39,951 nt of DNA, from assembly GCA_016841625.1 (NCBI GenBank), contig JAENYU010000008.1:23673-63623 (forward strand). Reading direction: 5' to 3'. How positions within the stretch are numbered: position 1 is the stretch's first letter; every line of letters begins with the position of its first letter. Of the stretch, positions 13,193 through 17,432 are shown piece by piece. Source of the DNA: Methanobacteriota archaeon. Lineage in GTDB: Archaea; Halobacteriota; Methanosarcinia; Methanosarcinales; Methanosarcinaceae. The notes under the pieces are model-generated. The model saw only the letters and a program-made list of their open reading frames with translations, searched no databases and was not told where the DNA came from. A program made the translations under genes and the position numbers.

Positions 13193-13397
13193 TTTATCGC
13201 TCCATTACTATTTTAGGCGCTGTCCCCTATAAAAAGCATTTCATTTATCTTAGCAGGCGGGAAGACTCCTTCCTCGGAGGCCTTAGGCCGACAGGTGGGA
13301 GATGGGAGCCGTCAACTTCCCGACACTACAATAAAATAACTCATTGAAAATTATAAAAGAATTTCCTTATCTCATTTTAAAACAATTAAGGAATGTC

Positions 13398-14692: not shown

Positions 14693-14809
14693 CTGAGCTT
14701 GTTTTACATATAATGTTCTAAATAAAAATGAAGAGTTATCAGCTCAGTATCAATTTTATAGGCTTAATTATTATTTGTCCTGTAAATTTCAAAAACAGCA
14801 GCAAGGAGT

Positions 14810-14879
14810 TTACTGTAAAGTACTGTAAGGCAAAATATCTTACAGTAAACGTCAATTTTGGATTTACCGTTAAATATTT
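14810..14879. repeat. 70-bp direct repeat, upstream copy, with TTTACTGTAAA-type palindromes
   Basis: It matches 16211-16280 at 66 of 70 positions in the same orientation. It contains TTACTGTAAAG followed by TACTGTAA, then CTTACAGTAAAC and ATTTACCGTTAAAT, all variants of a TTTAC-n-GTAAA palindrome. The last part doubles as the promoter of the downstream gene. Confidence 0.9.
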
Positions 14880-14907
14880 ACCTTTACAGTACTTTACAGT
14901 AGATATG
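14866..14907 (+). promoter_or_regulatory. Leaderless promoter with operator over the start codon
   Basis: A TATA-like TTAAATATTTA (about 14870-14880) lies some 25-30 bases before ATG 14905, so transcription should start at or next to the start codon. No ribosome binding site is present. TTTACAGTACTTTACAGTA fills the space between TATA and ATG, a position where a bound regulator would block initiation. Confidence 0.55.
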
Positions 14908-16197
14908 GACATTGAAAAGCTCCTTGCCCTAATTCAGGAAGGGGAGTCGGAAAGGGTAGAGTTTAAGCAGAAACCTACAAGCGCACTTAATAAAGAGCTT
15001 ACCGCCTTTTCAAATGCTAGCGGCGGGTATCTCCTCATAGGAGTTGACGATTACGGGAAAATTGTGGGTACGGACGTAAAAAAAGCACAGGACGCCGTAT
15101 CTGCCGCTGCTCAAAACATAATTCCCCCCCTGAAGCTGAAGACACAAAAATTTTCAATCGACGCCAAAGACATTCTTGCTGTTGAGATTAAAAAAGGAGA
15201 TACGCTTTCTTCCGTGGGAGGGGTTGTATACATCCGGATAGGGTGTAGTTCAAGGCCTCTTTCTATACAGGAAATCCTGATGCTTTCCAGTGAACTTGGA
15301 ACCCTTAACTGGGATGAAGCCCCTTTAATTCCTTTTAAGACCGCAAAAACCGAATTTCTTGACTGGTTTTTTGAAGAAATCACGAGAAGCAGGGGCAAAA
15401 GTGTAGCTGACGAAGACAGGAACCGGTACTTGCGAAGTTCAGGAGCTGTAAAAAACAGCATGCTGACAAATGCAGGGACCCTATTTTTTACAGATGTCCA
15501 GGAGTTCATCCCTCATGCAAAGCTCAGAATTATAGCCATGGAAAAAGGCCAGCCTGTATGGAGTAAGGAATACGAGGGTCCTGTATGGAAATGTATTGAA
15601 TCCGCTTACGAGGACCTGCTGCGGGAAATTAAAAAAATCGAGTTCATCAAAGGAACAAAAAGAGTCAAAATGGAAGAGTATCCCCCAAGGGCTCTAAGGG
15701 AAGCAATCATAAACGCTGTCTCCCACAGGAATTACGTAATCAATGCCGATGTCCGAATTTTCCTCTACCCCGACCGCATAGAGATCAAAAACCCCGGTGG
15801 CCTGCTGCCCGGTGTGAACCTCGATGACCCGGATCATGTCCCCAGAAACCCGGCAATCTGCAACCTCCTCTACGATACCGGCTTTATAGAAAGGTACGGC
15901 TACGGGATCCAGCTTATAAAAAAGGAAACCGAAGAACATCCCATTTGCTCTGTTACCTTCAAGACCGACCCGAACCGCTTTGTCGTGATCTTCAAGAAAG
16001 ACCTCTCGATGATCCTTGATGATTCTGATAAACAAATCTTACAATCCGCCGTATCCCCCATGAAAAGCAGTGAAATTGCTGAACTTACGGGTATGTCCAA
16101 ACCTACAGCTCTCCAGCACCTTAAAAAACTTGAAGAGCTGGAACTAATCAAAAAAATAGGGTCAGGCGCCCGGACAAGGTATGAGATAGTAAAGTAA
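14905..16197 (+). CDS. AlbA_2 (Schlafen-type) / GHKL-ATPase / winged-helix regulator
   Basis: 430 residues in the COG2865 architecture. The N-terminal AlbA_2 domain has ESERVEFKQ and KELTAFSNASGGYLLIGVDDYGKIVG, as in Schlafen-like nucleic-acid-binding domains. The middle holds a HATPase_c_4-type ATP site (ALREAIINAVSHRNY, YPDRIEIKNPGGL, FIERYGYGI). The C-terminal 60 residues are a winged helix (SSEIAELTGMSKPTALQHLKKLEELELIKKI). Such proteins are usually called transcriptional regulators, and related AlbA_2 proteins occur in defence islands; the real role is unknown. ATG 14905 is chosen over the longer frame because the family begins there and the upstream codons are repeat DNA. The palindromes at both flanks suggest autoregulation. 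Confidence 0.85.
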   Translation: MDIEKLLALIQEGESERVEFKQKPTSALNKELTAFSNASGGYLLIGVDDYGKIVGTDVKKAQDAVSAAAQNIIPPLKLKTQKFSIDAKDILAVEIKKGDTLSSVGGVVYIRIGCSSRPLSIQEILMLSSELGTLNWDEAPLIPFKTAKTEFLDWFFEEITRSRGKSVADEDRNRYLRSSGAVKNSMLTNAGTLFFTDVQEFIPHAKLRIIAMEKGQPVWSKEYEGPVWKCIESAYEDLLREIKKIEFIKGTKRVKMEEYPPRALREAIINAVSHRNYVINADVRIFLYPDRIEIKNPGGLLPGVNLDDPDHVPRNPAICNLLYDTGFIERYGYGIQLIKKETEEHPICSVTFKTDPNRFVVIFKKDLSMILDDSDKQILQSAVSPMKSSEIAELTGMSKPTALQHLKKLEELELIKKIGSGARTRYEIVK

Positions 16198-16210
16198 TTT
16201 GCACCGGGCA

Positions 16211-16280
16211 TTACTGTAAAGTACTGTAAAGCCAAAAATCTTACAGTAAACGTGAATTTTGGATTTACCGTTAAATATTT
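16211..16280. repeat. 70-bp direct repeat, downstream copy
   Basis: It has four mismatches to 14810-14879. It begins 14 bases after the stop of the AlbA_2 gene. Further single palindromes follow at about 16303-16314 (CTTAACAGTAAA) and 16319-16332 (ATTTACTGTTAAAT), so the operator-like cluster continues to 16340. Confidence 0.9.
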
Positions 16281-16468
16281 CGAGGTTCTGAACTTAACAG
16301 TAAATCACCTGGTTTCGGATTTACTGTTAAATACTGCAAAAATCTAATTTTAACAATAAGCTGCGTGTTGCCTTTTGCGTCAAGCCTTTTAAAGGAAAAA
16401 AATAGAGGATTGATAAGAAACAAAAATCAATATACCTTTATCAAACAGGAGATTAATCTCATACTTTG

Positions 16469-16852
16469 ATGACAATAATTGATCCAATAATCATTTTTGG
16501 AGCAAACATTGTTGTAGGCGCAGTTGTAGGTTCTTTTTGCTTATTTGCCCCAAAAAAGGCAGTAACATCCATTTTTAATGATGCCTTCTCCTACAGCGAA
16601 ATTATCCGTCTTGCGGGAGCTTTCTGGATAGCATTAGGAGTGCTGTCTTTTTTCGGTTTATTCTATCCGGTTCGGTTTTCTCCAATCCTTTTCTTCCAGC
16701 TGGTATACAAACCCCTCTGGCTGCTTGTTTATGCCCTGCCTCATGCAATTAAAAGGGATTTTACACATATCCCGTGGATAATGACGGCCTTTTTCCTGCT
16801 GTGGGTAATTTTGTTGCCCTTTGCGATTCCCTTTGATTATTTGTTTGGGTGA
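16469..16852 (+). CDS. Small hypothetical membrane protein
   Basis: A 127-residue hydrophobic protein with about four predicted helices: residues 4-26, 44-65, 73-90 and 103-125. There are short charged loops between them (APKKA, HAIKRD). No family is recognised. TTG 16466 is in frame directly before ATG 16469; I take the ATG. GGAG lies 17 nt upstream, too far to be convincing. It stands alone between the AlbA_2 repeats and a gene on the other strand. Confidence 0.7.
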   Translation: MTIIDPIIIFGANIVVGAVVGSFCLFAPKKAVTSIFNDAFSYSEIIRLAGAFWIALGVLSFFGLFYPVRFSPILFFQLVYKPLWLLVYALPHAIKRDFTHIPWIMTAFFLLWVILLPFAIPFDYLFG

Positions 16853-17024: not shown

Positions 17025-17432
17025 TCAGATTTCATCCCAGATGTGAAAGAAACCCAGCAGTGGAAGCCTTGCAGGTGTAAATGCGTCCCGCAATAAATGG
17101 GAAGCATATCCCGCCTCCGCAAAAAAGAGCCCGAAAGCAAATTCACTCCTGGGGTTAGCAGTCAGGATTTCTGCATAAGTGTAGATGAAAAATAACAGCA
17201 GCAGTGTCAGGAAAAGGACCGAATGGAAAAATCTCCTGTGATAGCCGCCCCTTGGTGGTTCCAGCAGGTCAGGCAGCCTGGACCCTATCGCTGCGGATGC
17301 AATAGCCAGCAGTATAAATTCAAAGCCGAAGGTCAGGCCTCTTGAATCCAAAAACATGAGGAGAAAGAAAGAAACCATTACCCCTATGTAAAAATGCTCT
17401 TTTCGGCCTGCCAGAATGCATACCTCCTTCAC
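17025..17432 (-). CDS. Membrane-bound hydrolase-like protein (YdjM/DUF457 family)
   Basis: About 135 residues with four hydrophobic segments and the family motifs GSRLPDLLEPPRGGYHRRFFHS and AGYASHLLRDAFTPAR. The Asp/His residues resemble those of metal-dependent phosphohydrolases; function in vivo is unknown. The GTG at 17432 is weakly placed, because the GGAGG ribosome binding site lies inside the frame (codons 2-4). This points to initiation at ATT 17417 or CTG 17414 instead, giving a start at about LAGRKEHFYIG. One of several genes here with an unusual start. Confidence 0.75.
   Translation of the reverse strand: MKEVCILAGRKEHFYIGVMVSFFLLMFLDSRGLTFGFEFILLAIASAAIGSRLPDLLEPPRGGYHRRFFHSVLFLTLLLLFFIYTYAEILTANPRSEFAFGLFFAEAGYASHLLRDAFTPARLPLLGFFHIWDEI

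What the first reader, a model, noticed from the sequence alone, without database searches (positions are those of the whole stretch)
14810..16340. AlbA_2/Schlafen-type ATPase gene bracketed by 70-bp direct repeats full of TTTAC-n-GTAAA palindromes
Copies at 14810-14879 and 16211-16280 agree at 66 of 70 bases. Both contain four variants of the same palindrome, and one further tandem pair lies directly between TATA box and start codon. The protein has a C-terminal winged helix that could bind them. The layout looks like a self-controlled cassette: either both ends are operator arrays, or a mobile unit is flanked by its own recognition repeats.
Basis: partly seen in the sequence, partly recalled or inferred. 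Interest (0 to 1): 0.72.

Follow-up and report, generated by a model that had tools for sequence, protein, structure and literature searches.

The report
Schlafen-type gene inside duplicated palindrome array
In a methanogenic archaeon, a gene of a kind linked to virus defence sits between two copies of an old palindrome-rich spacer that related species carry only once and without the gene, which looks like a clean case of gene insertion with a long duplicated target whose repeats also form the gene's promoter.

Summary
The repeat is real: 14810-14879 and 16211-16280 match at 66/70, and its palindromes are far beyond chance. The bracketed gene (14905-16197) encodes a Schlafen/AlbA_2-GHKL-wHTH protein, an architecture published as a defence effector.

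The repeat is not the gene's own. A palindrome array lies in single copy just downstream of a PNPOx-family flavoprotein gene in congeners and in a second genus, without the gene. In two congeners (G001, G003) the empty site is exact: the left flank of the window's upstream copy and the right flank of its downstream copy are joined by one array. A third congener (G002) has array-gene-array like the window.

So this is L-array-gene-array-R against L-array-R: insertion with a long (about 95 bp) target duplication and no recombinase inside. The upstream copy ends one base before the ATG and supplies the TATA-like element. I infer that a protein bound to the palindromes represses the gene; a host factor is likelier than the gene's own wHTH, because the array persists in genomes without a close relative of that wHTH. 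Repeat recombination explains patchy loss. Five of 30 distant homologues also have flanking repeats (suggestive). Binding, expression and RNase activity are untested.

The parts
14810..14904 (+). Upstream array copy (repeat core 14810-14879; weaker similarity to 14904), ending one base before the start codon; near-perfect 93-bp dyad; proposed promoter/operator
14870..14879 (+). TATA-like element TTAAATATTT
   Evidence: read from sequence; conserved in G002; function inferred
14882..14901 (+). Tandem CTTTACAGTACTTTACAGTA between TATA-like element and ATG; proposed repressor site
   Evidence: conserved in G002
14905..16197 (+). Gene for 430-aa Schlafen/AlbA_2 (14-119) - GHKL ATPase (281-363) - ArsR-like wHTH (384-417) protein
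   Evidence: dN/dS 0.12 vs G002
16211..16305 (+). Downstream array copy
16294..16330 (+). Right-hand palindromes of the ancestral array (13-bp inverted repeat around an 11-bp loop); only in the downstream copy and in the empty sites
14764..14808 (+). Left flank shared with the empty sites of G001 and G003 (39-40 of 45 bases)
14695..14761 (+). Relic of the PNPOx gene's upstream region; the PNPOx coding sequence is deleted at 14761/14766 in this genome
13344..14576 (+). IS200/IS605-type TnpB gene, a separate insertion left of the array (homology to G003 resumes at 13250 and 14695)
17025..17432 (-). YdjM-family membrane protein gene, conserved right neighbour of the array, convergent with PNPOx in the empty state

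Best explanation
A Schlafen-type defence-like gene entered a pre-existing palindrome array that lies downstream of the PNPOx-family gene, and about 95 bp of the array (up to 115 bp in G002) was duplicated on either side (insertion with long target duplication). The left copy ends one base before the start codon and now serves as the gene's promoter/operator: archaeal TFB/TBP would use the TATA-like element, and a dimeric factor bound to the palindromes between it and the start would keep the gene off. That factor is more likely the host protein that maintains the array elsewhere than the gene's own wHTH. Homologous recombination between the two copies converts them to one another and can delete the gene, leaving one array. 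The protein would act as an ATPase-gated RNase. Shown: anatomy, empty sites, age of the array, selection on the gene. Inferred: promoter use, repression, deletion by recombination, RNase action.
For: Exact empty site in G001 and G003: the window's left flank (39-40/45) and right flank (19-21/25, then 21/26) are joined by one array. The array is ancestral: it begins about 40-75 bp past the PNPOx stop in G103, G109, G111, G124, G121 and G010 of another genus, no gene there; 42 bp at 95% between G003 and G109, whose shared coding regions are 73-90%. The same array-gene-array is in G002. Gene divergence G000-G002 (dS 0.335) equals that of neighbours (0.314, 0.317), dN/dS 0.12: old and functional. 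Recombination between copies: bases 41-71 are 29/30 alike in the window but 19/30 in G002. The upstream copy from the TATA-like element to the ATG is conserved in G002. The AlbA_2/GHKL/wHTH architecture and E14/E19/D49 are conserved in 33 homologues; the published effector class is in PMC12839542.
Against: No transcript, binding or activity data. The 25 bases next to the ATG are only 12-15/25 like the empty sites, so the inner end of the duplication is uncertain. G000 and G002 differ left of the array, so the original left junction is seen only in the window. Polarity (gain then loss, or exchange of haplotypes between species) is not settled: G000 is outgroup to a near-trifurcation of G001-G003. 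The array's own function in gene-free genomes is unknown, so 'operator' is by analogy.
Confidence: 0.6

Rival explanations
1. Self-controlled cassette: the gene's own wHTH dimer binds the TTTACNGTAAA sites of both copies and represses its promoter; the repeats came with the gene as its operators.
For: ArsR-like wHTH by sequence and fold; palindromes overlap the TATA-ATG interval and are conserved in G002; the upstream copy carries an extra perfect tandem pair.
Against: The array is present and intact in genomes without the gene, in another genus too; the wHTH has no relative at E<=1e-6 in 110 other family genomes; palindromes in gene-free G001/G003 are more perfect than in the window.
Confidence: 0.22
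2. The array is an RNA-level element (bidirectional terminator or 3'-end hairpins between the convergent PNPOx and YdjM genes); the gene landed in it and the palindromes have no operator role.
For: Lies just after the PNPOx stop and between convergent genes in relatives; arrays fold strongly as RNA (z -3.3 and -6.7 for the two strands in G003, -8.2 for the window's upstream copy); adjacent palindromes often alternate T/A centres, so neighbours can pair.
Against: Each 11-mer is palindromic on its own, as for DNA operators; number and spacing vary between species and centres do not alternate in G103/G109; no Rfam family reaches its threshold.
Confidence: 0.22
3. True mobile unit: the repeats are recognition ends used by an enzyme acting in trans (for example a solo Cas1 or another recombinase), which moves the 1.4-kb cassette.
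For: Exact empty sites; similar TTTACTGTAAA...TTTACAGTAAA arrays sit directly after solo cas1 genes in the sister genus.
Against: Repeats are direct, imperfect and long, with no constant junction; the cassette is found only at this locus; no exact copy of the 20-bp unit in viral contigs; the cas1 arrays differ inside and may be convergent.
Confidence: 0.06
4. Assembly or annotation artefact.
For: Draft genomes; repeats can be mis-assembled.
Against: The window contig and an independently assembled congener (UBA9310, G002) show the same structure with diverged copies; the single-contig genome G003 shows the empty site.
Confidence: 0.02

Closest known systems
Insertion with long target duplication (Nobusato, Uchiyama, Ohashi and Kobayashi, Gene 2000, as cited in PMC1643837)
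   Same: Gene between two long direct copies of a sequence that the gene-free relative has once; no transposase; described for restriction-modification genes, another defence class
   Different: Archaeal; between species rather than strains; a single Schlafen-type gene; the duplicated target is a conserved palindrome array that also becomes the promoter
Schlafen RNase - minimal histidine kinase (GHKL) - wHTH effectors linked to BREX and related systems (PMC12839542)
   Same: Same domain order; acidic residues E14, E19, D49 conserved in homologues
   Different: Stands alone here; no BREX or restriction-modification gene among the neighbours scanned; activity not shown
DIP2311 of Corynebacterium diphtheriae, PDB 3LMM
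   Same: Best sequence and fold match
   Different: About 17% identity; TM-score 0.44 over the whole chain, so domain arrangement differs or is mispredicted
Solo cas1 3' palindrome arrays of the sister genus g8
   Same: TTTACTGTAAA and TTTACAGTAAA in inverted pairs about 26-37 bp apart, starting about 10-15 bp after the gene
   Different: Inner sequence differs (ATGTAAA units, about 43-bp tandem period); homology to the PNPOx array not shown

Membership tests
Insertion with long target duplication | Long direct repeats directly flanking the inserted gene | tested here: met
   70 bp at 94%, similarity to 95 bp
Insertion with long target duplication | Relative with one copy, same flanks, no gene | tested here: met
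   G001 and G003
Insertion with long target duplication | Target sequence predates the insertion | tested here: met
   Single array after PNPOx in another genus
Insertion with long target duplication | No transposase or recombinase within the repeats | tested here: met
   One gene only, AlbA_2/GHKL/wHTH
Prokaryotic Schlafen-GHKL-wHTH effector | AlbA_2, GHKL ATPase and wHTH in that order | tested here: met
   Pfam 1.5e-21, 5.9e-19, 3.8e-9; model pLDDT 89
Prokaryotic Schlafen-GHKL-wHTH effector | Conserved acidic residues of the Schlafen RNase core | tested here: met
   E14 33/33, E19 29/33, D49 32/33; equivalence to the eukaryotic E-E-D triad is from memory and motif, not superposition
Prokaryotic Schlafen-GHKL-wHTH effector | RNase or anti-virus activity | not testable with these tools
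   needs assay
Prokaryotic Schlafen-GHKL-wHTH effector | Linkage to BREX or restriction-modification genes (common, not obligatory) | tested here: not met
   Ten neighbours scanned, none found
Self-operated regulatory cassette | Binding sites occur only with the regulator gene | tested here: not met
   Array in gene-free genomes
Self-operated regulatory cassette | Protein binds the palindromes | not testable with these tools
   needs EMSA or ChIP
DNA transposon / insertion sequence | Transposase and terminal inverted repeats, copies at several loci | tested here: not met
   No transposase inside; one locus per genome

The most novel reading that the evidence does not exclude
The TTTACNGTAAA arrays of Methanosarcinaceae are a genuine class of recombination or attachment sites, shared by the PNPOx locus and by solo cas1 genes, and serve as docking places where defence-type genes are exchanged by duplication of the array and then placed under its control.
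Probability: 0.08. Interest if true: 0.8.

Novelty: new variant of a known kind. Interest (0 to 1): 0.5.

Why it matters
It is a clean archaeal case, with filled and empty sites at base resolution, of a single defence-type gene gained with a long target duplication, and it suggests that the duplicated target can supply the gene's promoter at once. If flanking repeats are common around Schlafen-type genes (5 of 30 here against 0 of 102 random and 2 of 109 neighbouring genes), this route may help explain how such genes spread without transposases. The conserved palindrome array after PNPOx is an unexplained cis element with an unknown binding partner.

Tried and rejected
Array as a dispersed MITE-like repeat: rejected, one locus per genome. 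Viral carriage: exact 20-bp unit absent from viral contigs; plasmid and phage homologues listed are only about 25-31% identical. Known RNA family: only a sub-threshold chance match (let-7, E 0.065). Recent transfer of the gene between G000 and G002: rejected, dS equals the backbone. A standalone regulator with the same wHTH: none at E<=1e-6. Pattern search is void (my pattern had one A too many; zero even in G003). and the ORF ends used wrong strands for some loci; redone. One search failed on region length; the control was redone. X (gene left of the array in G002) has no Pfam or PADLOC match and only a non-significant NCBIfam hit. Literature searches gave no paper on this array.

Full report
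Observation. All nine sites within one mismatch of TTTACNGTAAA in the 40-kb window lie in these two intervals; whole-window shuffles give a mean of 1.2, and none of 2000 local shuffles reaches the local counts. The upstream copy is also a large dyad (39-bp arms, 85% complementary; fold z = -8.2).

The gene. 14905-16197 encodes 430 residues with a Schlafen AlbA_2 domain (1.5e-21), a HATPase_c_4 (GHKL) domain (5.9e-19) and an ArsR-like winged helix (3.8e-9). The AlphaFold model (pLDDT 89) matches DIP2311, PDB 3LMM, best, then kinase-type ATPase domains and a Schlafen-11 N-terminal domain. In 33 homologues E14 (33), E19 (29), K21 (33) and D49 (32) are conserved, in keeping with a Schlafen-type acidic site, and so are N270, G298, G332 and G334 of the ATPase. 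[quoted passage not shown]). Here no defence neighbour was seen.

Empty sites. Of four genomes held for the genus, G002 (UBA9310; 92% protein identity) has array-gene-array too. G001 and G003 lack the gene and have one array. In them the 45 bases left of the array match the left flank of the window's upstream copy (39-40 of 45), while the bases right of it match the right flank of the window's downstream copy. So the window is L-array-gene-array-R and the relatives are L-array-R. G003 is a single-contig genome, so this is not an assembly gap.

The array is older than the gene. A DNA search of 112 family genomes finds the array in a second genus (g8), and at one further locus in a third (g2). 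In g8 it begins about 40-50 bases after the stop codon of a PNPOx-family flavoprotein gene, between that gene and the convergent YdjM gene in G103, G109 and G010, with no AlbA_2 gene. One g8 genome is 5,751,492 bp long, the size of M. acetivorans C2A (identity inferred). Between G003 and G109 the core is 95% identical over 42 bp while shared coding regions are 73-90%. In the window PNPOx itself is deleted: its upstream region (14695-14761) now abuts the array's left flank, and a TnpB insertion lies just left of it.

History. Local trees place G000 (window) outside G001-G003, which are nearly a trifurcation with mixed signal. The gene's dS between G000 and G002 (0.335) equals that of neighbours (0.314, 0.317), and dN/dS is 0.12. 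So the gene was probably in the genus ancestor, has been kept under selection, and was lost in G001 and G003, or the two haplotypes have been exchanged between species. Bases 41-71 of the two copies are 29/30 alike in the window but 19/30 in G002, a sign that the copies recombine within a genome. The same process would delete the gene and leave one array.

Mechanism. The upstream copy ends one base before the ATG. It holds a TATA-like TTAAATATTT about 30 bases before the ATG and the tandem CTTTACAGTACTTTACAGTA between the two; this stretch is almost unchanged in G002. A protein on these palindromes would block the initiation complex, the usual archaeal form of repression. I think the binder is more likely the host factor that keeps the array intact elsewhere, since the gene's wHTH has no close relative in array-bearing genomes without the gene. 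Self-binding is the main rival; an RNA or terminator role of the array is the other.

Comparison with the known. The pattern is that of 'insertion with long target duplication', first described for restriction-modification genes in two strains of one bacterium (cited in PMC1643837). As a post hoc check, 5 of 30 distant homologues have direct repeats of at least 49 bp within 400/500 bp on either side, against 0 of 102 random genes of five relatives (p = 0.0005). On the same contigs it is 4 of 20 against 2 of 109 neighbours (p = 0.005). Numbers are small, the test was chosen after seeing the data, and for these homologues no empty site was examined; in L012 and L015 the repeated DNA looks like part of a neighbouring gene.

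Limits. Nothing here shows expression, binding or enzyme activity.

Noticed in passing
L111, L112, L113, L114, L118 (whole cas1 or its C-terminal part); L098/L119, L120, L109, L110 (remnants): In genus g8, solo cas1 genes (PF01867) are followed about 10-15 bp after the stop by TTTACTGTAAA...TTTACAGTAAA arrays with GTAAA-rich units of about 43 bp in tandem; the arrays persist even next to what look like degraded cas1 3' ends.
   Followed up: partly
L063 7939-8721 (G002): A 260-aa gene (MRCGTMEIPVFLSYAKPYN...; no Pfam hit) is transcribed divergently from the AlbA_2 gene across the upstream array; the PNPOx gene of G002 is at the end of another contig, and both contig ends share AACCTAACTTTGACAG, probably an IS end.
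   Followed up: partly
L099 4778-4860 (G124): Five 18-bp tandem repeats carrying ATTACTGTAAA lie upstream of PNPOx, so palindromes flank PNPOx on both sides in that genome.
   Followed up: no
L012, L015, L016, L032, L040: Distant AlbA_2/GHKL homologues are also flanked by direct repeats of about 50-690 bp, in L012 made of a piece resembling the 5' end of an hsdR-like gene.
   Followed up: partly
window 16466-16852: A 128-aa membrane protein gene right of the downstream array was not found at this locus in the related genomes; the locus looks like an insertion hot spot.
   Followed up: no
L104 4391-4431 (G004): A 41-bp element close to the array core stands alone between a carboxymuconolactone decarboxylase-like gene and a convergent PHP-like gene in a third genus, near a tRNA-like sequence.
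   Followed up: partly
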